Part shown: in pieces, positions 1-63,647 of the stretch
Layout: the number at the start of each line of letters is the position of its first letter
Numbering within the stretch: the stretch's first letter is position 1
DNA from: Dirofilaria immitis
Taxonomy: Eukaryota; Nematoda; Chromadorea; Rhabditida; Onchocercidae
DNA length: 64,000 nucleotides
Reading direction: 5' to 3'
Assembly (NCBI GenBank): GCA_024305405.1
Contig: JAKNDB010000087.1
Coordinates: forward strand, 1,054,001 to 1,118,000
Notes under the pieces: model-generated
Told to the model about the DNA's origin: nothing
The model's input: the letters and a program-made list of their open reading frames with translations, nothing else
The model's database searches: none
Program-made: the position numbers and the translations under genes

Positions 1-1190
1 CGTTCAAATTTTATTAATTACTTTTAGCGATTAATTAAATAATAATCAATAAAATCGAAAAAAATTTTTGCTTCAAAGTCAGTCTGTCAGAAACAAAAAT
101 TTAGGCTTTTGTATTTGAAATAATTATTTGAAACATAATAGCATGCGAATACTTTATATGAGCGGTACCATTATACGCTTTTTTATTTTAATATCGATTT
201 TGGCCCTTATGAGTGTAATATTGAAATTATAACGATATCACTGTAAGTTCATATCACTGTAAGTTGAAATTTAATTATCAGATATTCCGATAATTTTTGG
301 TGCAATGGTTTCATGTGAAATTTCCAAATAATATATCAACTGTTATTTATTGGTGAATGATAGATCATTCATTGACCATTGATGATTGTTAATTTGACTT
401 TTTATCTTAACTGTCTATTTTAGTGAATTCTAATAATATATTTTAAAAGTAAAACATTTTAAAACCTATACATTACTTGTATGCATTACTTAGCTCATGA
501 AACCTCCACAATATCATGCGATATTCAAATCCTTCCTAGAAATTTGAGTATTTCAAAATTCCATCTGCCATAAATTACTGCATTTTAACAGATTATCTAT
601 AAAAATAAAGTTCATAATATCATGTTCTTTAGGAGTATACTGAAGAATGACCGTCATATATCAGAATTATTTCACTATTAGGTAATTCATCAATCTTAAA
701 GAACTTCATGTGTTTGCTTGCTACGGATGTTGTTATCGCTTCAAAATAAATTAATTCAGTTTGTTGATAATTGGTGTAGAATAGAAAGTAAATGAATTTT
801 TTTGAAGCGATAATCAATTCATGTGACAATTTCAATAGCAACCTTGTACACTATTTTCAATTTGCTTCGTACGTAAGGCACGAGAAATAAATAAAATATA
901 ACAATAGAAATAAATTATTCCAGATTTGAAACGATTAAAAATTGTCAAAAGGTGAACAATAATTTTGATATGTATTATAGCAGCATACATTTCATCAATT
1001 ATAAAAAAATTGATTTTCCTTTGTTTGAGAAGGAAAGGAATTTAATAATAGTGTTGAATTCTGTTGATAGTTATATTGATATTAACAGAGATAGTAATGA
1101 CTTTTATTTGCATAAATTTGCATAAACATGGTTTTCAATGAGGTTATTATAAAAAGTTTCCAATACACCACAAAGCATTGATAATATTAA
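1..1190. repeat. Repeat blocks upstream of the zinc-finger cluster; no gene seen
   Basis: Bases 1-55 resemble, in reverse, the 3' flank of the zinc-finger genes. The following stretch (about 65-235) matches about 3925-4085, and its second half also matches 32980-33062. Bases 350-470 match 34270-34390, and 860-1190 match 4930-5280. No convincing exon was found. The pattern is a patchwork of pieces of one multi-copy segment in both orientations. Confidence 0.6.
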
Positions 1191-1498
1191 AGATTAACAA
1201 GCTCGCTTTTTATTCTATAAATCGTTTTCATTGCCATATTTCGACAATAAAAAGCTTACATAATCATGCAAAAAGATTAGGGGTAGTGTGATTTATCTTT
1301 CATAGATCACATGAATAGAGAAACGTTTAAAATCACTCTCCAAATCAGTATAACATTTAATATTTGCTACAGTTCATTCGCCTCCTCTGATTTATCTATT
1401 TTATAAAAATTCTTCCTAGAAATACTATCCAGAATCCTACGCTAAATTCTATTCCATATTTTAATCATTACTATTTATCCGTAAAATTCCTTGCGAAA

Positions 1499-3116
1499 AT
1501 GCTATTGTTTTATTACTTTCTAATAGCTGTATTGCCATTATGCGTCACACAAGTAACAGTAAGTGAATAAATTTAAATTATTATTTTTATTTAAAAATTA
1601 AATATTTATAAATTTTCTGTCTTAATCAATGACAGAATTTTTCCCTTAAAAAGAATACCAACAGTAGCATTCATTGTTTGTGTTTTTATCATTTTTTCCT
1701 GTTACCTTCAAAGCAGTTATTATTTAAGCTCTCTATAGCATGGTAGTAACTGCATATGCTAATATCAATAGAATTCCTTCACAATGATTGAAATTGTTCG
1801 AAAATTTTCAAGAAAAATAATCATCAAATCATTTTCATTTCGCATAATTTTAGATGCCAAATGAAAATGATTCATCAATAGCGGGAGGTATACATGACCA
1901 GTTAGATTTCAATGAACATAATCGAAAACATTCAAACGAAAAACGGTTCAAAAGCGATGTATGCAGTGCGGAATTCTATCAACGCAACAATCCGAAAAGA
2001 CATAATCGAACAAGCGAAAACCTATTCAGATGCAAAATATGCGATAAAGGATTCAGTATTTCTAGCAATCTGAAAAGACATAATCGAACACATACAGGAG
2101 AAAAGCCATACAAATGCGATATATGCGATAAAGAATTCGCTGATGTCAGCAGTCGGAATAGACATCATCTAAAACATACAGGCAAATACCTATTCAAATG
2201 CAAAATATGCGATAAAGGATTCAGTGCTTCGAGCAGCCTGAAAAGACATCATGGAACACATACAGGAGAAAAGCCATACAAATGCGATATGTGCGATAAA
2301 GAATTCGCTGATGTCAGCAGTCGGAATAGACATCATCTAAAACATACAGGCAAATACCTATTCAAATGCAATATGTGCAATCAAAGATTCATTGATGCCA
2401 GCACTCTGAAAATACATCGTCGAACACATACAGGCGAGGAGCCATACAAATGCAAAATATGCGATAAGGGATTCAGTACTTCTAGCAATCTGAAAAGACA
2501 TCATGGAACACATGCAACAGAAAAGCCGTACAAATGCGATATGTGCGATAAAGGATTCAATGATGTCAGCAATCTGAAAAGACATCATCTGAAACATACA
2601 GGCAAATACCTATTCAAATGCAATATGTGCAATCAAAGATTCATTGATGCCAGCACTCTGAAAATACATCGTCGAACACATACAGGCGAGGAGCCATACA
2701 AATGCAAAATATGCGATAAGGGATTCAGTACTTCTAGCAATCTGAAAAGACATCATGGAACACATGCAACAGAAAAGCCGTACAAATGCGATATGTGCGA
2801 TAAAGGATTCGCTGATGTCAGCAGTCGGAATAGACATCAAGCTACGCATACAGACGAAAAGCCATACAAATGCGATATGTGTGATAAAGGATTCAATGAT
2901 GTCAGCAGTCTGAAAAGGCATTATCGAAAACATACAGGCGAAAAACCACATAAGTGCGAATTATGCGATAAAAAGTTCAGTGATAATAGAAATTTACAAA
3001 AGCATAAATACAAGCATTCAATTGAAAGACTGTATTGCATGAAAAGCATACTAACAAATAATATTTGCAATACAGCTATATTAATAGAGAAATTAATTTC
3101 ATATTCAAAACTCTGA
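1499..3116 (+). CDS. C2H2 zinc-finger array protein with signal-peptide-like first exon (copy 1)
   Basis: Two exons are proposed: 1499-1558 and 1854-3116, joined in phase 0 over a 295-base intron (donor GTAAGTG, acceptor ATTTTAG). Exon 1 codes 20 residues, MLLFYYFLIAVLPLCVTQVT, a hydrophobic leader typical of a signal peptide. Exon 2 codes 420 residues: a charged start (MPNENDSS), one degenerate finger lacking its first cysteine, then 12 regular C-x2-C-x12-H-x3-H fingers, many joined by Kruppel-type TGEKP linkers, and a short non-finger tail. Such fingers usually bind DNA in the nucleus, so a secretory leader is odd; the leader exon is kept in both downstream copies, which supports it. Exon 2 also begins with ATG, so a nuclear form from an internal start is possible. 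Fingers 5-7 and 8-10 are near-exact duplicates. The finger call is firm; joining to exon 1 is inference. Confidence 0.85.
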
Positions 3117-5070
3117 GCTCTGTTTTATCTCTTATATTTTGTTGATTATTGCTTAATTAATGGCTAAATATTTTTGAACAAAATGTTTATAGTTGCAAAT
3201 GAACTAAATATTGGATCCATTTTATCACTTATATTTTCATACATTATTGTAATCTATTATATTCTTTTTTAAACTACATTTATCTATTTGTTATTATAGT
3301 TTTTCATCATTGATTTGAAAATGTTATTAAAATATCTATAAGCTTGTTTTACTTGAATTTTTGCTCACTTTTTTATTATCACATAAGGTGGTTGAATATA
3401 GAAGAAATCAATGCACATTTCTTTTTCTTTACTTAATTTTGTAGAAATAATTGAACAGTATTTATATATTTATAGAATCTTGAAGTCGTTAAGCATTATT
3501 TTTCTGTTGATAAGTTGATTTATGACTATTAAATGTATAACATAATTTCTGTCGAAAAATTTTCTCGTATTCTTATTTGAAAAAAATATTTTGAAAATTA
3601 TTCAGAAGCATATCTTGCAAACGAATTGAAGTTGATGAATTTCTATCATTAAAAAACAACGTGCACAGAAAGCAAATACACAAGATTAATCAAATTACCT
3701 AATAGTAAAGTAATTGCAAATCAAAGGTATAGATGTAGAAAAACTAATCATACTGCACAAAAAGGGTCTTGAAAATTTCATCCAATAGCAAATACTTACT
3801 GTTGATTTGTTTGGCAGTAGGATAGAAAAATTCTACAATGTATATAATGAGATATGAAAACAAAGTAATATATATAAAAATTCATATTTTGTATGTATAT
3901 TCCAGAACATCAAACCGAATTTTCTTTGCTTCAAAGTGACCCTCAGAAATAGAAAATTTAGACTTTAGTGTTTGAAATAATTATTTTGAAATTATAATAG
4001 CACGCGAATACCTTTATGTGAGGCGTACTACCATATACTTTCTTTGATTTCAATATCGATTTTTGCCTGTTTGAGTGTAATATTGAATTAATCAAGTTCT
4101 GTTATGATTTAGTTTCTCACACTGTTATTTCTTTTTCTACATTTCATTTTCACAGTTATTGGATGCCAAGATTTATGAACTTCATTGCCGAATATGTATT
4201 ATTGGTGATGATGATAATAGTGATACCGATAACCAAAATAACAAAATTGCTTCGTTGGGATAACATATGCTCTAACTGAATCAAAAGCAGACAATAATGC
4301 AGTGACATAACTGCGTTTGCAGAAAATGCAAAATGATAATGCCGATGCTTAAAGATCGAGCCATCTTCTTGCTATCCAGTCGTTTGACATTCCTTTATAT
4401 ATTATGGAAAGATTATTCTGAAATTTCAGCGATTGAGACAGCAAAATCTTATACTCAACAATTATTTGTTATAAAAACTTTTTTGAGTTATTTCTTGACA
4501 GAGAGTTAATTTTTCAAGTTTCAGTTTTATTAATTTGATAATCGAAAACTTGGAAACAATAAGAAAATTTTAAATACGCTATTTCAAATCTGCTCAGCTC
4601 ATTATCTTTCTTTCACTTTTATAATGAATAATTTATTATAATGATGAGAAAAAATAGCGATAAACAGCTAACTATTCTTATTTCTTATCATAAATATAAT
4701 ATTGCATATCAGGAAACTTCAATATTTTTACTCAATCTATATTAAACTAATTGTTCCAGAAAGTAGAAAATTGTAATAGCTAATAGCAATCAAAATTTCG
4801 TAAAAATTTGCTTAATCAAGTTTTTACTAAAATTAATTCAAAGATTGAATGAATAGAAAAAAATGAATTTAATTTGAAACGATAATCAAATCATATGATT
4901 ATTTCGATTGCAAAATTATACAATATTTCAATTTGCTTCGTACGTAAGGCACGAGAAATAAATAAAATATAATAATAGGAAAAATCATTCCAAATTTGAA
5001 ATGATTAACACATGTCAAAAAGACGAACAATAGCTTTGATATTATAGCAGCAGCATACATTTCATCAATT

Positions 5071-5094
5071 TAAAAAAAAAAAAAAAAAAAAAAA
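5071..5094. repeat. Poly-A run of about 24 bases
   Basis: Interrupts the duplicated spacer between zinc-finger units 1 and 2; the matching place near 1005 has only seven A. Confidence 0.9.
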
Positions 5095-5583
5095 CGATTT
5101 TCTTTGTTTGAGAAGGAAAGAAATTTAATAAAAGTATTGAATTCGACTGATAGTTACATTGATATTATAGAGACATTCATCACTTTTATTTGCATAAATT
5201 TGCATAAACCTATGATTTTCAATGAGGCTATAAAAATTTCCATTACTTCACAAAACATTTACAATATTCAAGATTAACAAGCTCACTTTTTATTCTATAA
5301 GTCGTTTTCATTGCCATATTTCGACAATAAAAAGCTTACATAATTATGCAAAAGATTAGGGGTAGTGTGATTTATCTTTCATAGATCACATGAATAGAAA
5401 AACGTTTAAAATCACTCTCCAAATCAGTATAACATTTATATAACATTTAATACTTGTTACAATTCATTCTTTTCTGATTTACCTATTTTGTAAAATTCTT
5501 CCTGAAATATTATCCAGAATTCTACGTCAAATTCTATTCCATATTTTAACCATCACTATTTATTGTGGAAATTGCTTGCGAAA

Positions 5584-6531
5584 ATGCTGTTGTCCTATTA
5601 TTTTCTAACATCTGTATTACCATCATGCGTCATACAAGTAATAGCAGTAAGTGATCAAATTATTATTTTGACCGTAAAAATCAAATATTCATAAATTTTC
5701 GGTCTTAACCAATGACAGAATTTTTCCCTTAAAAAGAAAACCAACAATAGCATTCATTGTTTATGTTTTTATCATTTTTTCCTGTTACCTTCAAAACAGT
5801 TTTTATTTAAGCTCTCTATAGCATGGTAGTAACTGCATATGCTAATATCAATAGAATTCCTTCACAATGATTGAAATTGTTCGAAAAATTTCAAGAAAAA
5901 TAATCATCAAATCATTTTCATTTCGCATAATTTTAGATGCCAAATGAAAATGATTCATCAATAGCGGAAGGTATACATGACCAGTTAGATTTCAATGAAC
6001 ATAATCGAAAACATTCAAACAAAAACGAATCAAATGTTATGTATGCGATGCGGAATTTTTTGTTGCAGCAGTCGAAAAAGACATAATCGAAAACATGCAG
6101 GCGAGAAACACTCAACTGTAATATATGCGGTAAAGAACTTAAAAATTTGGCAATCTGAAAAGGCATCATGTAATGCATACAGGCAAATTCCCATTCAAAT
6201 GCAATATATGCGATAAAGGATTCAATGATGTCAGCAATCTGAGAAGGCATAATCTAATACATACAAACGAAAAGCCATTCAAATGCAAATTTTGCGTTAA
6301 GGGATTCAATGACATCAGCAATCTGAAAAACATCACAAAATACATACAGGCAAGAAATCATTCAAGTGCGATTTATATGCTAAAATATTTATTCGAAATA
6401 GTACTTTGCTAAGGCATAAAAGCATACACAAGGTTTCAGTTGAAAAATTGCATCACATGAAGTCACCAACCAATGATATCGTTAATACAGCTGCATTAAT
6501 TAAGAAAATCGTTTCACATTCAAGATTATGA
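5584..6531 (+). pseudogene. Decayed copy 2 of the zinc-finger gene
   Basis: The leader exon is intact at 5584-5646 (21 codons, MLLSYYFLTSVLPSCVIQVIA, donor GTAAGT). Exon 2 starts at 5937 after the same TTTTAG acceptor and keeps the MPNENDSSIA start, but it loses frame within about 35 codons and reads into stops. Finger sequence reappears in other frames: two readable fingers lie at about 6173-6330 (FKCNICDKGFNDVSNLRRH and FKCKFCVKGFNDISNLK), followed by another shift at CTGAAAAACATC. The array is much shorter than copy 1. The 3' flank matches the flanks of copies 1 and 3. I read it as a pseudogene unless some single-base gaps are sequencing errors. Confidence 0.8.
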
Positions 6532-8092
6532 GCTCTGTTTTACCTATCATATTTTCTTGATTATTGCTTGATTAATAGCTGAAAATATTTAATGAAATTC
6601 GAAGAAATGTTTGTAGTTGCAATTGAACTAAATATTGGATCCATTTTATAACTTATATTTTCATACATTATTGTAATCTATTATATTTTTTTAAACTACA
6701 TTTATCTATTTGTTATTATAGTTTTTCATCATTGATTTGAAAATGTCATTAAAATATCTATAAGCTTGTTTTACTTGAATTTTTGCTCACTTTTTTATTA
6801 TCACATAACGTGGTTGAATATAGAAGAAATCAATGCACATTTCTTTTTCTTTACTTGATTTTGTAGAAATAATCGAACAGTATTTGTAAATTTATAGAAC
6901 CTTGAAGTCGTTAAGCAGTTTTCTGTTGATAAGCATTAAATGTAGAGGTAACATAATTTCTGTTGAAACAATTTTTCTCATATTTTGATATAAAAAAATT
7001 TTTAAATAACTCAGAAACGTATCTTGTAAACGAATTGGAATCGATGAATTTTTGGTTAAAAAACAATTTGTACGGAAAGCAAATACACAATGTTCTTTAA
7101 GATTAATCAAATTACCAGTAATAAAGTAATTGCAAATCAACTATATAAATGTAGAAAAACTAATCATGCTGCACATTTTTCTTACGTATTACAGAAAAAT
7201 AAAACGGTTTTTAAAAGACAAAATTTATCCAGTAGAAAAAAATACTATTGATTTGTTTAGCTATAGGGTAGAAAAATCCATGAACTTTATTTGTGTCTCA
7301 ACTTTTGAAAAAATCGTGAAAATTTAATATTTGATGTCTTGTTACGTTGATGGTTTATTGAATCCATTAAATTTCAGTTAATTTCATGAATTAAGAAATA
7401 AATTATCAGTAAATTAAACATCATACAAAACATTACAACAAATATGCTTCGTATTCATATTGCAAAAACACAAAAGAGAGGATGGAAATTCATAACAGAG
7501 ATTCCGGTTACGGTTATTTTTATCATATGAAATTATTCACTCTTCTTCTCTAAATTTATTAGAAATGGTTTTAAAAATTGCATACATTTCACTGATTAAA
7601 GAATGAACAGTATCGGAATTTATCCCAAAACATTACAACCGAAATAATCATTAAGGAAGAATTACTTCCAATACTGTACTGCAGCGTATGCATATGAAAT
7701 CATCAAGAACCTAATCATTTCGAAGTGTCGTAACTCTCGGTTCATTTGGGAAAAAGTGAACAGAACAAAAGATTGATAATATTAAAAATTAACAAGCTCG
7801 CTTTTTATTCTATAAATCGTTTTCATTGCCATATTTCGACAATAAAAAGCTTACATAATTATGCAAAAGATTAGGGGTAGTGTGATTTATCTTTCATAGA
7901 TCACATGAATAGAGAAACGTTTAAAATTACTCTCCAAATCAGTATAACATTTAATACTTGCTACAGTTCATTCGCCTCCTCTGATTTATCTATTTTATAA
8001 AAATTCTTCCTAGAAATACTATCCAGAATTCTACGTCAAATTCTATTCCATATTTTAACCATCACTATTTATTGTGGAAATTGCTTGCGAAA

Positions 8093-9288
<1,196 letters not shown>

Positions 9289-9619
9289 GCTCTGTTTTAT
9301 CTCTTATATTTTGTTGATTATTGCTTAATTAATGGCTAAATATTTTTGAACAAAATGTTTATAGTTGCAACTGAACTAAATATTGGATCCATTTTATCAC
9401 TTATATTTTCATACATTATTGTAATCTATTATATTCTTTTTTAAACTACATTTATCTATTTGTTATTATAGTTTTTCATCATTGATTTGAAAATGTCATT
9501 AAAATATCTATAAGCTTGTTTTACTTGAATTTTTGCTCACTTTTTATTATCACATAACGTGGTTGAATATAGAAGAAATCAATGCACATTTCTTTTTCTT
9601 CACTTAATTTTTGTTCGTT

Positions 9620-13590: not shown

Positions 13591-13594
13591 CAAT

Positions 13595-13673
13595 CGTCAA
13601 GACGGATGTGGCATGATCTCATGATTTATTTCTTTTGATGCATGACATACAAGCACATCCGTATTGAAAATCG
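13595..13673 (-). ncRNA. Candidate microRNA hairpin with bantam/miR-80-type seed (1)
   Basis: The segment folds back on itself. On the minus strand a 5' arm (CAATACGGATGTGC...) pairs with a 3' arm ending in CACATCCGTCTTG across a short A-rich loop. The 3' arm contains TGAGATCATGCCACATCC (mature-like span 13599-13621). Positions 2-8, GAGATCA, equal the seed of bantam and nematode miR-80/81/82, whose mature strand is also from the 3' arm. A second hairpin with the same seed and the same ACATCCGTCT 3' half lies 5.3 kb away on the same strand. Fold and seed are seen; expression and processing are inference. Confidence 0.7.
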
Positions 13674-13679
13674 TTTGAA

Positions 13680-15670
13680 AGAAGGATCAAAGTTAAATAT
13701 TATTATACTGAGAAAAGTGTAGCAAGAAGTAAAGAAAAATATCTATTTTCAGATTAGCAAAATGAATTACCTCACTAAATTTATTAAAATTCATTTGAGG
13801 AGTTGAAGCTAGAAGACAAAAAATTTTTCTTGTAAATTTAAAGCTATCATTAGATTAATCTGTTCAATAATAAAATTAAAATGATTGATCTTTTCAATAA
13901 AGCTAAAATGAGCTAAATCGGCTAATCAGATATTATATATGAATCTGAAAAAATTTCGTAATTTTAAGACAAATCTACATTAACGTATATGAAATTATCA
14001 AATATTCGGAAACAAGCATTGGAAGATATGCGATACGTAATTAAATAATTTTCATCTCCTTCAATTCTCAAAAATCTATCAAATCTATTGTAAAAAAATT
14101 GCTGATAGTTGAAATTTTTCTAGCATATTAAATTAGCAATTAATTATAAAAATACGGTTATTAGACGTAGTTTTTAAAGAAAAATATGTGAATAAAATAT
14201 AAATAAAAATAAAAATTTTCATTTTTTTTCCCACAAATATAATCCCAATGATAACGTTTTCTAACAGATATGTTTGAATGAGATTAAAACTTTTTCACAC
14301 TTATTCCATCAATGAAAAGTAGAAATTCTTCTTTTTTTTCAATTTCTCTTCACTTCGATGTCAAATTGGCAAATTAAACAGCAGCACCAGTCACCAAACA
14401 ATTGAGAAAACGATAAATTGCAACCAATGAGAAAGCAAATTGTATGCAGTAATAAAAATTGCCAAACTAACGGGAAAAAAATGATTTAAATAAACAAAAA
14501 AAAGACGAAAAAGAATAAAAAGAGAGACAGAGAGAGAAAAAATGACGACGAAACGAAGACAAAATCATTTCATCCTGAAGAAAAAAGAATATTTTAAATT
14601 TGTAGAAAAAATCTAGTATGAGAGAAGCAAAAGGTAAATGTTTTAAAAAATTTGATAAATTTAAGTAACAATTTCTCAAGTAAGAGCAGGTGAGAGCAGG
14701 AAAAATGTATTTGAAGGATGAAATGAGAATTGCTGAAACGACGATAGAGGACAATATTCCATGCATATATAAATACATTTATAACACAAATATGAGTTTA
14801 CCTAAATTATTAAATTTTTATAATCGACCTTTTCTTTGACACTTAATTTTATTATTATTTTTTCCAATACGCTGATCAGAAAAAATGTTGATGTCTGCGA
14901 CAAAGCTCATTCATAAAAAAATAAGCAAAATTAGTAAATGAAAAACAAAAAAAAAGATAATTTTGATAATTTCTTTTCTAGCTAACGATTAGACAAAATT
15001 CCATGCATGAATTTATCGGGAAATGTTAGCGAGCAAAAAAGAATTGGAAAGCAAAAGAATTATTTTTTCTAATTTTTTTATCGGATTAAGAAAACTTCCA
15101 GTGAAACTATGAAGCAATGTGTGCATGAATCCAGAAAAAGTGAATAAAGATAAATTCAAAAGAAAAAGATGCAAAAATTAGCTTATATTTTGCGAAAATC
15201 GGCACAAATTAGAAATATTTCCCGATAAATGTGTTGTTATACGGAATAATTGAAATTAAATTTTTAAAATTTCAATTTATTCGATAGGATATCATTTACC
15301 ATTTTGACTTTTCGTTACTGATTTTCTAACAAGAAAGCAAGCTTCAAAAAAAAGTCTCAGGTAAAGAATCATAGTAATTTAAAAACTCATGAACTCATAA
15401 TAATTTCTTCCAATCGGTACATTCGCTTCTGCCTTTTGATTCAGACATATTTTTCCAATTTTAATTTTCACGATCATAACTCTTTAACTATTTCTTTCAA
15501 TCAGAAAAACTTTATAATGCTCTAATGCTATTTTTTGTTTTTCTTAATCTTTGCATATTTCCTCATTAGATATGATGCTTTACTATTTTGAATTCAACTA
15601 TCCTCGAATTTTCTATACCACAATATATTGCTGTCTGTCACAATTTTTGCAACATTCCATTTATCCACAA
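13680..15670. other. Gene-free spacer with purine-rich tract
   Basis: Contains an A/G-rich stretch (about 14460-14650) that creates an open frame on the minus strand with no domain. No exon with matched splice sites was found. Confidence 0.35.
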
Positions 15671-15674
15671 TCTA

Positions 15675-15740
15675 ATTTAAGGCCCTAACTTGACAGATCG
15701 GACGAGATGCCGTGCTTCCAACGTGGTATGGTCGTAGACA
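15675..15740 (-). pseudogene. Truncated 5S rRNA fragment
   Basis: Read on the minus strand from 15739, the sequence gives TCTACGACCATACCACGTTG, then GAAGCACGGCATCTCGTCCG, then ATCTGTCAAGTTAG. This matches the first ~52 bases of metazoan 5S rRNA. The match stops in the AAGTTAAGC region that begins the internal promoter; the remaining ~65 bases are absent. It also differs from the expected CCCGTCCGATCTGGCAAG at two sites. It is a dead dispersed 5S copy, not a working gene. Confidence 0.8.
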
Positions 15741-16844
15741 TAATCAATTACAAAAATATCTATCAAATTCCCATATTTTCTATCATTCTACTTGTGATCC
15801 ATCCATAACAATTGTTTACTCAAAATTTAATTTTAATCATACAGGATGAGAAGGAGAAACGAAATATTTAATAATTTAATATTACGAATAAATAATTAAA
15901 TATTATCTATAAAATGTTTTAATCATTCTCGAATATTCAAATAATCTTTTTTTCCTGCAATCATAATTTCTTCGTTTAGTTTACCTAATTTTTGTGCCTT
16001 ATCTTTTACCTTATCTCTCCCTTTTTATCATTATCATAAACTTTTCCTCTCTTCATTCTCTGATAAAAAATTTAGCAATATTGTCTTCCTTCTTTTCATG
16101 TAAACGATAGAAATATTAATAGAAAAAAAGAAAAAACTTATACAATTTCTAGATTTTACATTCTTAAAAAGTTTACTAATATTCCATATTTTTTTATATC
16201 CTTTTCTATAGCTTCTTTATGTATCAAAAATATAGAGAGAACTATGCTTGCATGTCCCAACAATTTATGTGCAATTTTTACGGTAAACAATAAAAGGAAC
16301 TTATATCAGTTTTTAACTTTCATTTCGTAAAAATGGAAGTTGTAAGATTTTTGCACAAAATTTAGATAAATTAGCGCTAACATAAAATATTCAATTTGAA
16401 ATGAAATGAAAAGAAATAAACAGAAATAAATAATGAAAGAAAATTATTGAAATTATTTCGGTAATAAGATATGTCATTTAGCAATTACATGTTTAATTTT
16501 TATCATTGATTTTACATTTTAGCAATTTTTTTATTTCTTTTGCCCCTATCCCTTAGTTAATATATAATGTTTTTTTTTTGAAGATAATGTTGGGAATATC
16601 GGAAATATACCTTCCTACTCTTTCTCCTTCTTTTTTTTTTTTCTTGAAAAGGCAGATGTAAAAATTCCTGAAAGATGCTGCACAAAGATAGATAGAATTT
16701 TAAAGTGTATGCCAGAAATTTACCAAATACTGGATTTGCAAAACACAAAGATCGACCTGAAATGTAGAAGATGATTCAAAATATTTAATTTATTCATGAT
16801 ATCGATCATGTTATCATGATAGAGTATATTATGATATCGGTTTA

Positions 16845-17130
16845 TCATATATTATTCCAATTAACAAGATCATTTTATTAATCCAATCATTTAACATAAT
16901 ATATTCTATCATAATAATATAATGATTGAGTTTATAAGTAAAAAATATTGATATCAGTAATGAATGATCCAAAATAATAAGTGAGAAATATCAAGAACAG
17001 AAAAGAATTTATAACAGTTTCATAACCATTAAATTTTTGGTTTTCTGTTTCCCGACTCATTCTCCATTTCTGATGTATATTCATGATTCGATTAATAAAA
17101 TGATCTTGCTAATCGGAATAATATCCAAGA
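16845..17130. repeat. Inverted repeat, about 43-base arms
   Basis: Left arm about 16846-16890 (ATTATTCCAATTAACAAGAT, then CATTTTATTAATCCAATCAT) is mirrored by 17085-17128 with a few mismatches. The spacer is about 195 bases of AT-rich sequence. The form fits a foldback element or small non-autonomous DNA transposon relic. No target-site duplication was confirmed. Confidence 0.55.
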
Positions 17131-18908
17131 TATTTTTACTTATAGTCTCAATGAATAACATTGCTGGAATAATTGAAATATTTTATAATACAAATATAGC
17201 GAAATAATCAAGATATTTTTGTGTTATTTAAATATCTTGATATAAACAAATGATTTTATAACATAAAATTGTTTTGATTGTTATCAAATATTTGTACTGT
17301 AGAATTTTCCTTAAATGATTCATTACTTAAGATGAATATACATGATGGTTATCTAAATAATTCTCATTTTTGTCAACGAATTATACCTTCGATACTAAAA
17401 TATCGTAGACTAATTTTGTATGTCAACATTCCGATCTGATAACCAAGTTCATGTTCACTGCTTAGAATATTGTAAGCAACTCCTCAAAATTATCTGTAGC
17501 ATTATAACTTTCATCGATTACTTGACAAGCGGTTTGTTTCAATGGAACTTTAACCGTTTATCAAATTTTATTAACCTTCAAACAAATATCTCTACAATCT
17601 ATCAATAAAAGGCATCTGAGTCATGGAATTAATTGCATTGTAACGCAGTTTCAGTGATAAATTATAGTGATAAACTCAGTGATAAACTCTGTGATGAACT
17701 ATGTCATCATAGAAAAAATTCATCTGTTTCAAATCTCCAATTTTCACATAAAAATTTTTATAACGTCATCAATGACAATGATTCATTTGATTATCATGTC
17801 AGATTCCAGAAGGGTAGGAAATAAATGGAAGAACTGTGTCTCTGAATGAGAAATCAGACGGATGTTTGTCATTGTTGACCTAAATTTATCCATTCCGCAT
17901 TCCGCACTCGATAATTGCATATTACAGTTTTATATTTTGATGATAATGGATGTAGAAAATGAAATATGACAATGATGTTGGTGATATAACGATTATAACG
18001 ACGAAGATGATGAATGATAACAATAATAAATGGTATTTGATGCCATCGGAAAAAATTTTTGACTACATAATATAAAGCATATATTAACGATTAGATATCA
18101 ATTAATAATTATTACTGCTTAGTACCATTATATTATTTTATTATTATGATTGGCATTTCATAAATAATAATAATTGGGATAAAAATTTATGTCATCTAAT
18201 ATCAAAATAATTGATCACTATTATTATTACTATTATTAATATTTATTTATTTTATTACACCTTTATTGTTAATTATTATCATTTTTATTATCATTAGATC
18301 ACTACTTGCTGTTTTGCTAATTATCATCGTTCATATCATTTTAATATTGCAACAATAATATGATAAACTGATTATTAATTTTCCTCATTCAATATTTGAT
18401 AAATATGAATGAATATCTTTCTAAGAATCAATAGTTCAGGTAATATCAAAATATAACAAAATTTTTCCTTTTTCTTATATTATGATAATCTTTTAAAAAT
18501 GTCTAGATGATAAAATATTACTATATTTATTAATCAATAGAAAGCTGGTGATAAGTTCGGCATCATGGAAAATTTCACTAATTGTATAAATAATGAGCAG
18601 ATAACGCATTGAGATTATAAGCACTGTTTCAAAATATAATGTGATAATATATTCTCAACATTGTATTTATAAAATTACAAACAAATCTTATTTCTCTATA
18701 ATAAAATTCATAAAATGAATGCTAATTGAGAAGAGTGAATTTAATAAATTACATTCAAATAATATTTTCTCAACCTTTTTCTTTCATCATTTTTTTGTTC
18801 TCATTTTCTACACACAAAAACTTTTCATTGTTTTGCAAAATAACGTAAATTAATGAGAAATAATTAATTAATGATATTAATGATGTCATTCAGTACTGCA
18901 GCTATGAT

Positions 18909-18983
18909 ATCGAGACGGATGTAACGTGATCTCATGGAATTCAGTATTATACAGCATGATTTCACGCACATCCGTCTCGAGAT
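18909..18983 (-). ncRNA. Candidate microRNA hairpin with bantam/miR-80-type seed (2)
   Basis: On the minus strand, the 5' arm TCGAGACGGATGTGCGTGAA pairs with the 3' arm ending in ACATCCGTCTCGA: 13 consecutive base pairs at the base, a small bulge, then more pairing around an AT-rich loop of about 15 bases. The 3' arm carries TGAGATCACGTTACATCC (mature-like span 18913-18934), so the seed GAGATCA is the same as in the hairpin at 13.6 kb. The two hairpins agree at both ends of the mature strand and differ in the middle, as expected of paralogous microRNAs. No protein-coding potential was seen around it. Strand choice rests on the seed match. Confidence 0.75.
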
Positions 18984-22528: not shown

Positions 22529-23269
22529 TGATTATTATTGATATATTAAAAATTAATAATAATAATAATAATTAATCATCTATGATGACGTCATCATTTT
22601 GATAATATAAAAATTTCTTATTATTCTTATAGTAATTTATTAAGCGATATTTTTAATTTTTTCTTCTTCCTAATTATTTTTGAAAATTTATTGAATTTGC
22701 ATTTGCAGATTTCCATAAGGATAAATTTCTATTCCTAGCAATAATAATAGTTGTAATAGTAATGATTGTAATAGTAGTAATTATTTTAGTAATAGCATTT
22801 AAAAGAAATGCAAATGATATTGTGAGATAGTAGAATCATTGAGTATAGCGCATTATTTAAAGTTTAAAAAGCGAATGAATGTTTAAGAAACTAAACAACA
22901 GCAATAAGTGAAATAGTTGAATTATTTGAAGGACACATATATTTCATACGTTATTCAGACATACACATATATTCTATTGCAAATGAAGCAATCGAAAGAG
23001 TTAGACAGACGAAAGATTCGTAAATTTTCAATTCATTAATTCGAGAAGAAATAGTAAACTGACATTAATATCGATAACTATTGGTCCGCCTGAAAACAGC
23101 TGTGATGATAAAGAAGAATGGGATTGAATATCTATCGGATCCGAAATGACCGATCAATTCGATGTTCGTAATATCGCTATAGGAGAGAAATGATTAAAGA
23201 GAAGAAGAGGAAAGAAATAAAATGATAAAAAAAGGCAGAATTCATAGAGAAGATAAAGGATATCATTTA

Positions 23270-23272
<3 letters not shown>

Positions 23273-23308
<36 letters not shown>
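23273..23308. repeat. (TA)n microsatellite
   Basis: About 17 TA units; part of a microsatellite cluster with the TATG-rich stretch at 23480-23550 and the TA tract at 23737-23778. Confidence 0.9.
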
Positions 23309-23312
<4 letters not shown>

Positions 23313-23733
23313 CTTCATCGACAAACATTCTTTCTCTTCTTGATCTAATCAAATGAGAATTTGAATTTGAGTTTCTCAGACGGCAACGAAAATGACTGAT
23401 TGAATGAGAAATGATGATGATGATGATGATAATTCATGATAGAAGGTAATGACAATGATGCTGGCGATATGCAATAAACTATGTCTATATGTATATGTAT
23501 GAATGTATGTATGTATGTATGTACACACTGCTATGTATATGTATGTCTTTTTCGTAGACGATGATAATGACGATGATTTATCACTCATTATATGGAGATA
23601 GTGATAATATATACGTATATTCATTCGAATCAAAATATGAAATTGATAAATAAAATTTCTCTTTACAAAGAAACTTACAAAAAGAAAGGAAAAATAAATG
23701 ATACACAAAATAATCTACCTGAACAATGATTTA

Positions 23734-47819: not shown

Positions 47820-50800
47820 CTATTCCTTCATTTTCTTTATTTCTGATCGAATATTTAAATGATATTTCGGCTCGGGAGCTCCTAAATCACCCACGTATCG
47901 TTCTTGATCAAACTCATTCAAACCACATGGTCGACGCCATTCCTGACCTCGTTCTCGGAACCATTTGTTTGCTACCCATTTAATTCCGGTTAATACCGGA
48001 CATGCAGCATGTCGAGAACGTATATCTATTTCACCGCTACGCATTAAATTATACCAAAACAATGCTGCATTCTGCATAATTCAAACAATACATTAATTAA
48101 GCAAAGTATAAAGTATAATAATTCAGGTATACTTAATGTCATTTTTCTAGATTAAAATAAATTTCAGAGAGTTTTGCACAAAATTAAAAACTTTTCAAAC
48201 ATATACATATATATTACAAATAATTCTATCCATTTGTTGCATAAATTTTCTCCACTTATTCAACTTACCACAAAGAAACAAATTATGGAAGTAATGAAAT
48301 TGAATTCGAAATTAACCATTCTATTTATCCATAGCAATCATCAAAAGATATTTCGTATGATGATATAGAATCTAATTGTTGTTGTGCATCTAAAAATCTA
48401 ATAGCTTACCTTAATACACGGTAATGACATTTTCAAATTGGACATGAATATTGTCTCACCTCCGATTTCTGGCTCAGTCATCTGCAATGAAATGAAATAA
48501 TTATTTACATGAATTTCAATTAAAAACATTGGATTATTTAAAAAATTGAATAAGAAATAAATGAAATGGAAATAAGAAATACGTAGATCAAAATTGTAGC
48601 TATTCGATCCCCAGATTTCTCGAGACATTGGCCTTTCACTTAAAAATGTAATACATTATTATTAATATACGATCTGGTCAAAAAGTATTAGATAACAAAT
48701 TATTAGCGATTCGCATATTCGAATACTATTTTGGCTTCGTATTAAGACAATTAAAGTACATTTCTGCAATTCATTGGTCTAATTTTTAAAATTTTTCATT
48801 CCAAATATAATTTGAATAAAAGATGTAAACAATCGTATCGACGCATATAATATAATAATGACAAAAGTAAATAACTAAGTAAGACTTATTTTTGAACAAT
48901 CTAAGTGAGGTTCGTAATATCCACCGATTCCATAATTATGAACCTGAAATATCTTAAAGTGACTAAACTTATGATACACAGTCTTGCTGAATATGATTCT
49001 AACGAAGTGAAACCATTTATATTATGTTATTATTTTTAAGAATGTCCGTTTGAAATAACGGGATAGCAAGAAAATGGTAATTTTATAATTTTGAACTTCT
49101 CTGATCTCTGTTTGAAATTTTGGAATCTGGAAGAATGACCGCAAGACCGTTCGAGGTTTCCACTTCGAGATTTGTTGCTAATTCAAGGCGTTTATCGAAA
49201 CGTTTAATTATTTCATGTTCCGTCGGTTTCAATACAGCACTAAAAATGAACTCAATATCCGATGAAAATTTAATAATCAAACCAAAGATTAAATTAATTT
49301 TCTCTTTTGCTTATCAAGCATATAAAATATTTTTATCTGCAATAGTGATCAACTTCATCCATCTATCATCAGTTAATCGAAAATGAAAGAAAAACGATAG
49401 GATGTAATTTTTTTGTTTTTGGCTATTTTATTTCCTTATAACTTAATGAAAATTTTGTCGTGAAACTAATATAAGTGAAGTATCGGAATATTTACGTCTT
49501 GGTAACACGATAATAAGCCGGCTCAAATTTTCCAGTAAAACGATTGCGAACTAAAGGTCGATACAACTGAAATTACTGCGATTCGATTTTGTCAGGTTTA
49601 AGGTAAACAAAGAAATCCATTCTTCTTCATTTTTTCTTGTCTTTCTAAGAATAAGCATACAATATAATAATAATATAAAGCAAGACGACTTAACATACCT
49701 TAGGTAATGCAATCATTTGAATAATTCGTGCTTCCTCGTCCGACATAATATCATAGAATAGTGCAGCTAAAGGATTTTGACGTACAATTTCTACTTTGAA
49801 TGGCGCTAAACGCAGATACGGACGATCCATTTTATAGTAGCAATACAGTTGCGATTGTACTTTTATATTCTACGAATTCAAAATTAATAAATTTCGAAAT
49901 TTCAACTTGACTATTTCTCTAACAAAATAAATTCAATTCAAATACAGCAAAGAAGTAAAACTATCAGTACTTAACGGTTTGTAGCATATTATATTATTAG
50001 AAAGTTTAATCAGTGGTACCCAAAGGATCAAAGCGATTTAAAATATTATAGTTGAAATTTAATTGTTCTCTACATGAAAAAATTAAATACATGACGATGA
50101 TGTACTTACGATATTTACTTGTTGTCGACATAATGCTTCATATAATAACATTATACCTTCGTCCATGTAACCTTCATTTCGAGAATTATTTATTGGTGGA
50201 ATGTCTCGCCGCATATCGATATGCTGAACTCCTTTACTTTTCAGCAAATTTTCATACTTTCTTATATTATCTTTGGCTCGTATATTATTCGGATCTGTAT
50301 TATAAGCAGAATGAAATATTTCGTGAAATTCTTTAAGCTTTTCTGTACTGTCACGTTCAGGGTCAACTGTTATGAAAAATGTTTGTAGCTTCTTATTAGT
50401 TTTCTCATCTAGTTTTGTAAGTACCTCTGAAATTATTCCAAGATTCATAGGGCAAACCTTTTTACATGAAGAGAACCCAAAGAAAATCATCATATACTTA
50501 TCTTTAAAATCTTTACTGTGTATAATTTGATTGTCTTGGTTAATTAGAACAAAATCTCTTCCTATTTTAACTTCTGTGTTGTGGGTAACTGTTGAGGTAA
50601 ATATGCATCTTTTGATGAAATAACAATAACTAAGAAAAATGACTGCTAATAATGCTATTAGCATGCTATATAAGAATTTTAAAATAATTAATATGCCATT
50701 AATTAGTAAATATAATGCATATAAAATTAATTTTCCCGCTTATGCATAATATTTCCGTATTGTTAAAGTTAGGAATTATTTTTGTTAAAAGAATTCAATG

Positions 50801-52263
50801 AAAAATAACTTACTTGAGCGATATAATTCATCTGTAACTAGTAAAGCTCGTTTCAGATTACCCTGTTTATATAATGAGAAAGCCAAATGTTCGAGAATAA
50901 CTTCTAGATTCGCCGTTGGCACGGTCTCCTTCTCAACACGTTCTCGCGCTTCTTGCATCCACATAATGGCATGGTAATAGTCTTCTGTATGATATGCTGT
51001 ACGGCCAATTTCAAAACAATCTTCAGCTGTAACATTCAAAATTCTGAAATTGATATATCTCCTCTTTTTAGCTATTCTATCTAACTTGAAGAATGCAAAA
51101 GAACATCTTCTTTGTCTGTCGTTTCTTCAAATTATCTTTTGAAGGTCAAAACTAACCAGTCATAGCAACTGCTTGGATTTGAGAATTTAGGATTTTTCCA
51201 TCAGCAATATCCTTAGTATCCAATTGATAGGTGTCTTGTAAACGCAACAAACCCGTTACTGCGCCTGATAGATCCTCCTATACAATTCTTATAATAGTAC
51301 ACCATTAATCATTTTGCGACGTAATCACTTATTGAGCGCATATCGGATATTAGCTAAGGTAGTATGAAAACAATTTTAACCGATCATTCCCACAAAAAGT
51401 TAAATTCGTTGGCAATAGTTTAATAACAAAGGCTGAAGTGATAAATTAATAGAACTTCAACTTATCATTTGTTCAAATTTTTTGTTTTAATCGTTCAATG
51501 GCATGAATTGAATGCATTACAATTTACAAAGTTTATATTAAAAGGAAAAAATATGCTTTATCAAATTCGTACAATTTATAATTAAATTCAACGAAATATA
51601 TTCTCATCAAATGGTCATTTATATTACAAAAATATCAGCCTTTTTGGAAAGAAAGGTTGCTAAAAGGAACCTCTGTAGGATAATTGATATTCCGTTGACG
51701 AGTCATGTTTCGGATAATATCATCGGCCAAATTAAATCGCATAATTTTTACTACTTTGTTCCAGTCTTCTACCATTCCTTTAATCAACAAAAAGCGTTAA
51801 CTGGATGTTTTATCGCTTCTTCACCATCTTGTATAGCTTTATCATTATGTTGTTTGATTTCTTGAGCAAGCCTAGAATTATATTAACAGTATGTGAAATG
51901 AAACTATTGAGTATTGATAATGCTACAGAAACTTTTAATTATTTCCAAAGGAAGTTTCGTCATTAGCATCGTAGTATTTTGGAAGTTGAAATAAGGAAAA
52001 AAGAATTAATGTTAGTTTTTCAGTGAAGTTAAGTATAAAATGACAATTAGAAGAAGAGTTAAACTGAGTTCAAAAGAAGACAAAAACTACATACTTCTTT
52101 AAATAATCAAGTCTTTCCAATTCTTTTTCAGATATCCATTAATCATTACCGAAATATTCTTTTCAACTCCAATTACTTCTTTCAATGAGGCAAGAGATGA
52201 ATAAACCTCGGCGGAAGCTCTAGCGATCAATAAGAATATATTAATTACTATCCACAATATCAT
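47820..52263 (-). CDS. P4HA: Prolyl 4-hydroxylase alpha subunit, copy A (frameshifted)
   Basis: Hydroxylates collagen prolines in the ER with Fe(II) and 2-oxoglutarate. Exons on the minus strand: 52263-52095 (signal peptide MILWIVINIFLLIARASA), 51871-51671, 51277-51157, 51026-50814, 50294-50110, 49869-49699, 49566-49496, 49239-49140, 48943-about 48886, about 48638-48583, 48481-48410, 48071-47820. N-terminal and peptide-binding regions are clear (GLLRLQDTYQLDTKDIADGK, TAEDCFEIGRTAYH). Iron ligands are visible as HLD in YEPHLD and the His of SRHAACPV; the 2-oxoglutarate lysine follows in GIKW. Damage: exon 1 is one base short at CTGAAAAAGAATTGG, exon 2 lacks one base that copy B has (near 51795), and exon 10 reads EKSGDRIA where copy B has EKLGTGNRIA. 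Exon 9/10 borders are uncertain. An AATAAA lies at about 47766-47761. Family call is firm; function is doubtful. Confidence 0.9.
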
Positions 52264-53003
52264 TATTTCTATAACTCATTAACATCAATATTTATTTCTG
52301 CATTTCCACAAACACAAAATGAATCACAAATGGAATTTCAAATCAAACTCGTACTAGACATATCAATCTTTCCTTCTAACTAACATCAGTTTCAGTGATC
52401 AGCTGATTTTCTCCCACCGGAATACCCATAAAGTCCAAAGAATTCATGTTAACGAGATGATATGTACTGAAAGGCAAGACAAATTATACAAAGATATTGC
52501 TGTTAGATACAAAATACAAAACTTTATTATATTCTAATTTTTATAATAACATTGGAAATGTGATTTAAATTGAGAATGAATGAAATGAATTTCGAAGAGA
52601 AATGATTAAATATTATTGGAAATTGAAAATGAATAGATCTTTTTCGGAAATCAGAAAACAAAGGTATATTTCAAGAATAACAAAATGAAACATTTAATGA
52701 TTATTGATATTATCTATGAAAGTTATCGTATAAAATGGTTTGAAATAAAAGATAGGACGTATGATGGATGGATGTTTGATAGAGAATTCGGAAAGTTCGA
52801 TGAAAGAACAGATTTTAGGATTTTGAAAAAACAAAAGTGATTTGAGAATCAGACTAACGCTGGATATTTAAAAGTTAATTATATACAGTTCAGAAGTTTT
52901 TAAAATTTCTTAAATCGTAAAAAACGTTAAATTATTTGCTCTCATCAGAATTCAGATTCAGCTTTTAGTATGTAAACAATTTATTTCAATATAGACTTAC
53001 AGA
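49650..53003. repeat. Near-identical duplicated block, left copy
   Basis: Matches about 58940-62295 with only scattered substitutions and single-base run-length differences over 3.3 kb. It covers exons 1-6 of the hydroxylase gene, all their introns, the SCO insert and about 740 bases upstream. Confidence 0.9.
50305..50664 (-). pseudogene. sco: SCO1/SenC fragment of probable Wolbachia origin, inside intron 4 of hydroxylase copy A
   Basis: A 118-residue open stretch starts MLIALLAVIFLSYCYF, a membrane anchor. It continues GRDFVLINQDNQIIHSKDFK, then MMIFFGFSSCKKVCPMNLGI with the C-x3-C copper-binding pair and following Pro, then FFITVDPERDSTEKLKEF. This is the first two thirds of a bacterial SCO/SenC copper-delivery protein for cytochrome oxidase; the C-terminal part with the copper-binding His is gone. 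CKKVCP in place of the usual CPxVCP, and the high AT content, suggest a Rickettsiales/Wolbachia source (inference). It lies wholly between the exon 4 donor (50813) and the exon 5 acceptor (50294). Its frame runs on through that acceptor into exon 5. It has no worm-type introns of its own. Confidence 0.8.
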
Positions 53004-53287
53004 GCCAAAGTAGAATTGCTGCCAGCATACAGGAAAGAAAAATATTATTTTCCTATAAAATTATGCAGAAAATGTGATGATTACTATCTGCTGCCTGAAA
53101 TATTCATTTGTTCTATCAAATGTAGAAAAATTTATATGAGTATCTATGACAAAAACATCGAAGATTGTCTTTTGAAAATCGAAATTTGAAATTGATTATA
53201 TGTCGTTGTTGCCATTTATGCTATTCCCGTAAATCAAATGAATTTCCTATTGAATCAAAATTTAAGACGGAAAAATCTTAAAAACTT

Positions 53288-53420
53288 TGTTGGATAATCT
53301 TACAACTATTATTATTATTTTGTTGGATAATCTTACTACTATTATTATTATTTTGTTGGATAATCTTACTACTATTATTATTATTTTGTTGGATAATCTT
53401 ACTACTATTATTATTTTTCT
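53288..53420. repeat. 33-base minisatellite, about 4 units
   Basis: Units begin GTTGGATAATCTTAC and end in a TAT/TTA run. They lie about 1 kb upstream of the first exon of hydroxylase copy A. The unit is a multiple of three, so it makes a spurious IIIIVVRLSNK reading on the minus strand. Confidence 0.95.
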
Positions 53421-57070: not shown

Positions 57071-60000
57071 TTAGTGTTTTCTGTTCATTTTCTTAGGTTT
57101 CTTAGTTTCTGATCGAATATTTAAATGATATTTCGGTTCGGGAGCTCCTAAATCACCCACATATCGTTCCTCATCAAACTCATTCAAACCACATGATCGA
57201 CGCCATTCTTGTCCTCGTTCATGGAACCATTTATTCGCTGTCCATTTAACTCCGGTTAATACCGGACATGCAGCATGTCGAGAACGCATATCTACTTCAC
57301 CGTTACGCATCAAACTATACCAAAACAGTGCTGCATTCTGCATAATTCAAACAATACATTAATTAAGCAAAGTATAAAGTATAATAATTCAGGTATACTT
57401 AATGTCATTTTTTCTAGATTAAAATAAATTTCAGAGAGTTTTGCACAAAATTAAAAACTTTTCAAACATATACATATATATTACAAATAATTCTATCCAT
57501 TTGTTGCATAAATTTTCTCCACTTATTCAACTTACCACAAAAGAAACAAATTATGGAAGTAATGAAATTGAATTCGAAATTAACCATTCTATTTATCCAT
57601 AGCAATCATCAAAAGATATTTCTGTATGATGATATAGAATCTAATTGTTTTTGTGCATCTAAAAATCTAATAGCTTACCTTAATACACGGTAATGACATC
57701 TTTAAATTGGACATGAATATTGTCCGACCTCCCATTTCTGGCTCAGTCATCTGCAATGAAATGAAATAATTATTTGCAGAAACATTTGCAATTAAAGAAA
57801 ATGAATTATCCAAAATTTTTATTCAGAAGCAAATAGAATAGAAATGAATGAATACATAAGTCAAAAATGTAGCTATTCGATTTCCTGTTCCCAATTTTTC
57901 GAAACAACGATCTCCCTTCTGAAATTATGATCCTTTATTGTCAAAATATGAACTGATCAAGAAAGTCTCAAATAACACTGGCGATGTATATATTAATCGA
58001 GTATTCTTTTGGGCTTTATGCAAGACGATTAAGGAATATTTCTGTAAACTCGTATCGTCGACATATAAATTTTAAAAACTGATGTAATTTTTTAAACTTA
58101 TATTTTGAAGGAAAATTCAAAAAAATTGTATCTACGCATAACAACATAATAATGATTAAAAAGAAGGACTGCAATAGAGATAGCACTTATCAATGCACAG
58201 TCTAAATGAGGTTCGTAATGTCCACCAATTCCATAATTATGAATCTGAAATATTTCCGATCTTGAAATTGGCTAAAATTTATAGAATACACAATCATATT
58301 TGTTGTAATTTTAAATGAAAAAAATTTATATTATACTCTTAACTATTTTCTAAGAATGCCATTTGAAACAATGAAATTGCAAAAAATGGAATTTTCATGA
58401 TTTTGACTTCTCTGATCTTTTTGTTTAGGAATTTGAAGTTAACCGCAATATTATCTGAGGTTTCTATTTCAAGATTTGTTGCTAACTCAAGGCGTTCATC
58501 GAAACGTTTAATTATTTCATGTTCCGTCGGTTTCAATACAGCACTAAAAATGAACTCAATATCCGATGAAAATTTAATAATCAAACCAAAGATTAAATTA
58601 ATTTTCTCTTTTGCTTATCAAGCATATAGAATATTTTTATCTGCAATAGTGATCAACTTCATCCATCTATCATCAGTTAATCGAAAATGAAAGAAAAACG
58701 ATAAGATGTAATTTTTTAGGCAATTTATTTCTTCATAATTCAACACAAAATTTTATTTCCGTGAAAATAAGTAAATACAAACGAACATTTACCTTTTAGC
58801 AACACGAAAGGCGACCGGCTCAGATTTTCCCGTCAAACGGTTAAAAGTTATAGATCGTTTCAACTGAAAATTATTACCATATCAATTCTGCAAAACGCAA
58901 AATAAATACAGTAACCCAATATTCCGCCTTTTTTTGTTGTTTTTGCAAGAATAAGCATAATAATATAAAGCAAGACGACTTAACATAACCTTAGGTAATG
59001 CAATCATTTGAATAATTCGTGCTTCCTCGTCCGACATAATATCATAGAATAGTGCAGCTAAAGGATTTTGACGTACAATTTCTACTTTGAATGGTGCTAA
59101 ACGCAGATACGGACGATCCATTTTATAGTAGCAATACAGTTGCGATTGTACTTTTATATTCTACGAATTCAAAATTAATAAATTTCGAAATTTCAACTTG
59201 ACTATTTCTCTAACAAAATAAATTCAATTCAAATACAGCAAAGAAGTAAAACTATCAGTACTTAACGGTTTGTAGCATATTATATTATTAGAAAGTTTAA
59301 TCAGTGGTACCCAAAGGATCAAAGCGATTTAAAATATTATAGTTGAAATTTAATTGTTCTCTACATGAAAAAATTAAATACATGACGATGATGTACTTAC
59401 GATATTTACTTGTTGTCGACATAATGCTTCATATAATAACATTATACCTTCGTCCATGTAACCTTCATTTCGAGAATTATTTATTGGTGGAATGTCTCGC
59501 CGCATATCGATATGCTGAACTCCTTTACTTTTCAGCAAATTTTCATACTTTCTTATATTATCTTTGGCTCGTATATTATTCGGATCTGTATTATAAGCAG
59601 AATGAAATATTTCGTGAAATTCTTTAAGCTTTTCTGTACTGTCACGTTCAGGGTCAACTGTTATGAAAAATGTTTGTAGCTTCTTATTAGTTTTCTCATC
59701 TAGTTTTGTAAGTACCTCTGAAATTATTCCAAGATTCATAGGGCAAACCTTTTACATGAAGAGAACCCAAAGAAAATCATCATATACTTATCTTTAAAAT
59801 CTTTACTATGTATAATTTGATTGTCTTGGTTAATTAGAACAAAATCTCTTCCTATTTTAACTTCTGTGTTGTGGGTAACTGTTGAGGTAAATATGCATCT
59901 TTTGATGAAATAACAATAACTAAGAAAAATGACTGCTAATAATGCTATTAGCATGCTATATAAGAATTTTAAAATAATTAATATGCCATTAATTAGTAAA

Positions 60001-61551: not shown

Positions 61552-62295
61552 TATTTCTATAACTCATTAACATCAATATTTATTTCTGCATTTCCACAAA
61601 CACAAAATGAATCACAAATGGAATTTCAAATCAAACTCGTACTAGACATATCAATCTTTCCTTCTAACTAACATCAGTTTCAGTGATCAGCTGATTTTCT
61701 CCCACCGGAATACCCATAAAGTCCAAAGAATTCATGTTAACGAGATGATATGTACTGAAAGGCAAGACAAATTATACAAAGATATTGCTGTTAGATACAA
61801 AATACAAAACTTTATTATATTCTAATTTTTATAATAACATTGGAAATGTGATTTAAATTGAGAATGAATGAAATGAATTTCGAAGAGAAATGATTAAATA
61901 TTATTGGAAATTGAAAATGAATAGATCTTTTTCGGAAATCAGAAAACAAAGGTATATTTCAAGAATAACAAAATGAAACATTTAATGATTATTGATATTA
62001 TCTATGAAAGTTATCGTATAAAATGGTTTGAAATAAAAGATAGGACGTATGATGGATGGATGTTTGATAGAGAATTCGGAAAGTTCGATGAAAGAACAGA
62101 TTTTAGGATTTTGAAAAAACAAAAGTGATTTGAGAATCAGACTAACGCTGGATATTTAAAAGTTAATTATATACAGTTCAGAAGTTTTTAAAATTTCTTA
62201 AATCGTAAAAACGTTAAATTATTTGCTCTCATCAGAATTCAGATTCAGCTTTTTAGTATGTAAACAATTTATTTCAATATAGATTTACAGAGTAT
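58940..62295. repeat. Near-identical duplicated block, right copy
   Basis: Partner of 49650-53003. Beyond 62295 the copies part: 53003-53258 is replaced here by an unrelated ~990-base stretch (62297-63286) before identity resumes at the minisatellite. Confidence 0.9.
59596..59954 (-). pseudogene. sco: SCO1/SenC fragment in intron 4 of hydroxylase copy B
   Basis: Near-identical to the fragment in copy A and at the same intron position, so the insertion came before the tandem duplication or was spread by conversion. One T is missing in the run after the CKK codons (near 59750), which breaks the frame just past the first copper-binding cysteine. The rest reads on in the second frame from MNLGIISEVLTKLDEK. 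Confidence 0.8.
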
Positions 62296-63315: not shown

Positions 63316-63647
63316 CTTTGTTGGATAATCTTCCTATTATTATTATTATTTTGTTGGATAATCTTACAACTATTATTATTATTTTGTTGGATAATCTTAC
63401 TACTACTATTATTATTTTGTTGGATAATCTTACTACTATTATTATTATTTTGTTGGATAATCTTACTACTATTATTATTATTTTGTTGGATAATCTTACT
63501 ACTATTATTATTATTTTGTTGGATAATCTTACTACTATTATTATTATTTTGTTGGATAATCTTACTACTATTATTATTATTTTGTTGGATAATCTTACTA
63601 CTATTATTATTATTTTGTTGGATAATCTTACTACTATTATTATTTTT
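63316..63647. repeat. 33-base minisatellite, about 10 units
   Basis: The same unit as at 53.3 kb, expanded to about ten copies upstream of hydroxylase copy B. The flank after it (63648-64000) is nearly identical to 53421-53771. Confidence 0.95.

What the first reader, a model, noticed from the sequence alone, without database searches (positions are those of the whole stretch)
13595..18983. Two paralogous microRNA hairpins sharing the bantam/miR-80 seed
Hairpins at 13595-13673 and 18909-18983, both on the minus strand, have 3' arms beginning TGAGATCA and ending ACATCCGTCT. They differ in the middle of the mature strand and in the loop, while stem pairing is kept. Seed, arm and conserved 3' half all fit one microRNA family with two genes 5.3 kb apart. 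The otherwise gene-free region may be a pri-microRNA locus.
Basis: partly seen in the sequence, partly recalled or inferred. Interest (0 to 1): 0.78.

Follow-up and report, generated by a model that had tools for sequence, protein, structure and literature searches.

The report
Two known filarial-worm bantam microRNA genes

Summary
Both minus-strand hairpins fold far better than shuffled sequence (z -4.2 and -6.8) and rank at the top of a whole-window hairpin scan, with only an AT-rich inverted repeat and a TA repeat scoring between them. The 18 fixed bases of the mature pattern have two perfect matches found in the 86.7-Mb genome, both here. Flank searches found no dispersed copies, though that search also missed the sister hairpin. 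Arms are conserved between copies (19/22 and 19/23); loop and flanks are not.

Copy A's mature strand is identical to Litomosoides sigmodontis 'Bantam-c'; copy B's differs by one base from 'Bantam-b' (lsi-bantam-3p). Those L. sigmodontis RNAs were sequenced from infected mouse serum (PMC4263141; PMC6903752). Exact bantam-a, miR-5866 and miR-5364 sequences make the genome filarial. The 5.3-kb linkage of b and c is not in the passages I saw; one shared primary transcript is possible but untested. Rfam's bantam model does not pick up these hairpins, so membership rests on seed, arm and published naming.

The parts
13592..13669 (-). pre-microRNA hairpin A (bantam-c type)
   Evidence: fold z -4.2, 0 of 200 shuffles as stable (slightly longer stretch); coordinates as aligned and modelled
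13600..13621 (-). mature 3p microRNA A, UGAGAUCAUGCCACAUCCGUCU
   Evidence: identical to published L. sigmodontis Bantam-c; coordinates
13641..13662 (-). predicted star (5p) strand of A
   Evidence: drawn from the fold assuming 2-nt 3' overhangs; no reads seen
18905..18982 (-). pre-microRNA hairpin B (bantam-b type)
   Evidence: fold z -6.8, 0 of 200 shuffles as stable (slightly longer stretch); coordinates
18913..18934 (-). mature 3p microRNA B, UGAGAUCACGUUACAUCCGUCU
   Evidence: one base (position 20) from published L. sigmodontis Bantam-b / lsi-bantam-3p; coordinates
18955..18975 (-). predicted star (5p) strand of B
   Evidence: drawn from the fold assuming 2-nt 3' overhangs; no reads seen

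Best explanation
Two paralogous microRNA genes of the bantam (mir-58/80/81/82) seed family in a filarial nematode, counterparts of Litomosoides sigmodontis bantam-c (A) and bantam-b (B). They most likely arose by duplication of one hairpin. Each RNA is cut by Drosha and Dicer, and the 3p strand beginning UGAGAUCA is loaded into Argonaute and represses mRNAs carrying UGAUCUC seed sites. Shown here: sequence, fold, two places only for the mature pattern, arm-limited conservation, and match to published small RNAs of another filarial species. Inferred: processing, expression and targets in this species, and whether both come from one primary transcript.
For: Folds; rank in a whole-window hairpin scan; exact and one-base matches to sequenced filarial microRNAs; mature pattern found nowhere else without mismatch and no dispersed flank copies found; arms conserved 19/22 and 19/23 against loop 9/19 and flanks near shuffle level (upstream 34/63, 7.6% of 500 shuffles as good; downstream 28/62, 58%); filarial genome. 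In C. [quoted passage not shown]
Against: No small-RNA reads for this genome could be examined. No Rfam family reached its cut-off in the window; at E<=5 over 9.5-26 kb the only family touching either hairpin was mir-44 on A (26.8 bits, cut-off 54), not bantam; a genome search with RF00727 listed bantam-a at C59 (41 bits, cut-off 61) but not these two, though only 57 of 93,020 first-look candidates were scored. So common descent with bantam-a is not shown. Hairpin B folds almost as well on the other strand (z -6.5).
Confidence: 0.96

Rival explanations
1. A pair of dispersed inverted-repeat elements (MITE-like) that happen to resemble microRNAs.
For: Two related palindromes close together; hairpin B is nearly symmetrical (one search finds its own inverted arm). 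The DNA search did not find A from B or B from A, so copies as diverged as these two would be missed.
Against: No other perfect match to the mature pattern in 86.7 Mb, and the two 2-mismatch matches do not fold; loop and flanks not shared; exact match to a sequenced microRNA of another filarial species.
Confidence: 0.01
2. Real microRNAs, but a separate filarial family that converged on the bantam seed rather than descending from bantam-a.
For: The run of identity with bantam-a covers only positions 1-9 (A) and 1-8 (B); the 3' half ACAUCCGUCU is unrelated; Rfam's bantam model does not detect A or B; MAFFT does not align the bantam-a hairpin in register.
Against: Same arm, same 5' end, at least eight identical 5' bases; microRNA paralogues commonly diverge in the 3' half (general knowledge); published authors file them as bantam by seed.
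Confidence: 0.25
3. The functional transcript is the + strand, giving antisense microRNAs.
For: The + strand of B folds at z -6.5 (0 of 200 shuffles) and of A at z -3.1 (1 of 200).
Against: Published RNAs of L. sigmodontis carry the minus-strand sequence; the family seed lies on the minus strand.
Confidence: 0.02

Closest known systems
Litomosoides sigmodontis Bantam-c (PMC4263141 Table 2, passage)
   Same: all 22 mature bases of copy A
   Different: different species; precursor sequence not available to compare
Litomosoides sigmodontis Bantam-b / lsi-bantam-3p (PMC4263141; PMC6903752; table passages)
   Same: 21 of 22 mature bases of copy B
   Different: position 20 is C there, U here; precursor not compared
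Filarial bantam-a, listed as lsi-miR-81-3p in PMC6903752
   Same: first 8-9 bases and 3p arm; exact copy at G000:C59:1278881-1278902
   Different: 3' half unrelated; separate contig
C. elegans mir-58/80/81/82 (bantam) family
   Same: same seed family by published naming (PMC5322734, abstract in listing); cel mir-81 and mir-82 differ from Brugia bantam by only two bases (PMC3282659, passage)
   Different: C. elegans sequences were not compared here; their 3' halves differ from A and B as I recall them

Membership tests
bantam/mir-58 seed family | seed identity at nucleotides 2-8 (definition used in PMC4316651, passage) | tested here: met
   TGAGATCA in both, identical over positions 1-8 to bantam-a
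bantam/mir-58 seed family | mature strand from the 3' arm of a hairpin | tested here: met
bantam/mir-58 seed family | match to the Rfam bantam covariance model RF00727 | tested here: not met
   no gathering match in the window; not among 12 matches at E<=5 in 9.5-26 kb; not among the 2 genome matches (57 of 93,020 candidates scored). Bantam-a itself reaches 41 of 61 bits
filarial bantam-b/bantam-c | mature sequence identical or nearly so to sequenced filarial microRNAs | tested here: met
   A 22/22, B 21/22
microRNA (annotation criteria) | stable, mostly paired single hairpin | tested here: met
microRNA (annotation criteria) | reads with a fixed 5' end from both arms with a 2-nt 3' overhang | not testable with these tools
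   no small-RNA reads available; star strands only predicted
microRNA cluster | gap of at most 2 kb (rule of the Brugia papers, passages) | tested here: not met
   hairpin-to-hairpin gap about 5.2 kb
microRNA cluster | one shared primary transcript | not testable with these tools
   no transcript data; same strand only

The most novel reading that the evidence does not exclude
bantam-b and bantam-c form an undescribed filarial tandem locus transcribed as one long (over 5.3 kb) pri-microRNA, so that two microRNAs found in host serum in L. sigmodontis infection are made and released together.
Probability: 0.25. Interest if true: 0.3.

Novelty: already known. Interest (0 to 1): 0.15.

Why it matters
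It places the genes of two microRNAs, known as released RNAs in a related worm, at exact genomic positions with their hairpins and paralogy, which helps annotation and gives coordinates for reading primary transcripts. It also shows that a reader of raw sequence recognised a real microRNA pair. It changes no general idea.

Tried and rejected
Third member: ACATCCGTCT recurs at 17856-17865 (-) between the two, but without the seed, and the best of three folds there has z -1.6; rejected as chance or a relic. TGAGATCA at 41239 and 55471 (+) does not fold (four folds, z -0.7 to 1.1). L003 and L004, the 2-mismatch hits elsewhere, do not fold. L006, a weak RF00727 hit (24.7 bits), does not fold; RF00727 also rang below cut-off in 5 of 14 control genomes, so weak hits mean nothing. 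The sub-threshold Rfam mir-44 match to copy A is treated as chance. A yardstick against reading too much into z: bantam-a's own hairpin in this genome scores only z -2.2, 8 of 200 shuffles as stable. Homology search with a zinc-finger ORF was useless for naming the species. Aligning bantam-a with A and B failed to put the mature strands in register. Words from the predicted star strands occur in none of the 40 papers listed of 43 found.

Full report
Observation. Copy A folds at -28.0 kcal/mol (z -4.2) and copy B at -40.8 (z -6.8), with 0 of 200 dinucleotide shuffles as stable for either. A scan of the whole window, both strands (90-nt stretches every 8 bases, MFE of -20 or lower, at least 20 pairs in one hairpin), kept 22 non-overlapping hairpins. 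By z against 100 shuffles, B ranks first and second (its two strands) and A fifth, behind an AT-rich inverted repeat at 17201-17285 and a TA-repeat hairpin at 23247-23336. The mature strands differ at positions 9, 11 and 12 only.

Not chance, no sign of a transposon. TGAGATCA-N4-ACATCCGTCT gave two perfect matches in the 86.7-Mb genome, both here, against about 0.0008 expected from window base composition. The two other places, with two mismatches each, do not fold. DNA searches with 351 bp around each copy returned only the copy itself, plus hairpin B's own inverted arm. This search is not very sensitive: it skips common words and did not find A from B or the reverse. Between copies the 3p arms match at 19/22, the 5p arms at 19/23, the loops at 9/19, and the 60-nt flanks at 34/63 and 28/62 against shuffled means of 28.7 and 28.1 (7.6% and 58% of 500 shuffles as good). 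Conservation limited to the arms is the expected mark of a duplicated microRNA.

Published identity. A paper search with A's mature strand found PMC4263141. In its Table 2 (passage), Litomosoides sigmodontis Bantam-c is identical to A (4 reads in infected mouse serum), and Bantam-b (45 reads) differs from B only at position 20. PMC6903752 lists the Bantam-b sequence as lsi-bantam-3p in a table of the worm's released microRNAs (passage). PMC5313568 tested both sequences by qPCR on human plasma or serum; neither is among the seven microRNAs it reports as detectable (passages). PMC4316651 says that L. sigmodontis bantam-b and -c differ by one base from their Onchocerca ochengi forms (passage). 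So the RNAs are known.

Organism. Exact copies of bantam-a (called filarial-specific by miRBase in PMC4316651, passage), miR-5866 (putative filarial-specific in PMC4019659, passage) and miR-5364 (known from filarial worms) make this a filarial nematode. B's difference speaks against L. sigmodontis, and A's identity with Lsi bantam-c, given the stated one-base difference in O. ochengi, speaks against Onchocerca. A Wolbachia-like SCO fragment in the window is closest (89% over 56% of the ORF) to the Wolbachia of Dirofilaria immitis, so a Dirofilaria-like species is a fair guess, not a proof.

Mechanism. Taking the published 22-nt 3p strand and a 2-nt overhang, the fold gives 5p strands of 22 (A) and 21 (B) nt, loops of 19 and 20 nt, and paired lower stems beyond the mature ends. 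The 3p strand starts with U and carries the bantam seed. In C. [quoted passage not shown] Similar use here is inference. Release into the host is published for L. sigmodontis; a function of these two in the host is not shown by anything I saw.

Family membership. By the seed definition used in the field the pair are bantam members. By covariance model they are not recognised: no Rfam family reaches its cut-off in the window, bantam is not among the 12 weak matches at E<=5 in 9.5-26 kb, and the genome search with RF00727 listed bantam-a at 41 bits, below its cut-off of 61, but not A or B (57 of 93,020 candidates scored). Descent from bantam-a is therefore likely but not shown.

Genomic linkage. 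The gap is about 5.2 kb, same strand. The B. pahangi and B. malayi papers count clusters only up to 2 kb (passages). The B. malayi paper names only miR-100a/d and miR-2i/2d as clustered family members (passage). I did not find b-c linkage described in those passages or in the listings; supplementary files could not be opened. Between 11.1 and 26.6 kb, 0 of 8 ORFs of at least 90 aa have a Pfam hit, so an intergenic pri-microRNA and a long intron are both open.

Verdict. Observation confirmed, interpretation supported, already known apart from the mapped linkage.

Noticed in passing
50086-50739 (-) and 59377-59751 (-): ORFs with a SCO1/SenC domain. For the first, 54 proteins match; those bearing an organism name are Wolbachia (best 89% to that of Dirofilaria immitis over 56% of the ORF), except one Onchocerca ochengi prolyl 4-hydroxylase-like protein matching another part; a prolyl 4-hydroxylase-like ORF lies next to it (50788-51126). 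Probably a Wolbachia DNA insertion in a nematode gene.
   Followed up: partly
47832-53004 and 57098-62292: Direct duplication of about 5.2 kb at 93% identity, copies 4.1 kb apart, carrying both SCO-like ORFs.
   Followed up: partly
779-3759, 4851-7175, 7765-9611: Three stretches related in DNA (about 81-95% between pieces); the first and third encode C2H2 zinc fingers (the middle one was not tested). A similar short hairpin occurs in each (1825-1874, 5908-5957, 8418-8467).
   Followed up: partly
63317-63647: Array of a 33-bp repeat at about 97-98% identity, with related sequence at 53286-53418.
   Followed up: no
17856-17865 (-): A third ACATCCGTCT on the same strand between the two genes, without seed or good fold; possible relic.
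   Followed up: yes
17201-17285 (+): AT-rich inverted repeat with 33 pairs, z -5.1, GC 16%.
   Followed up: no
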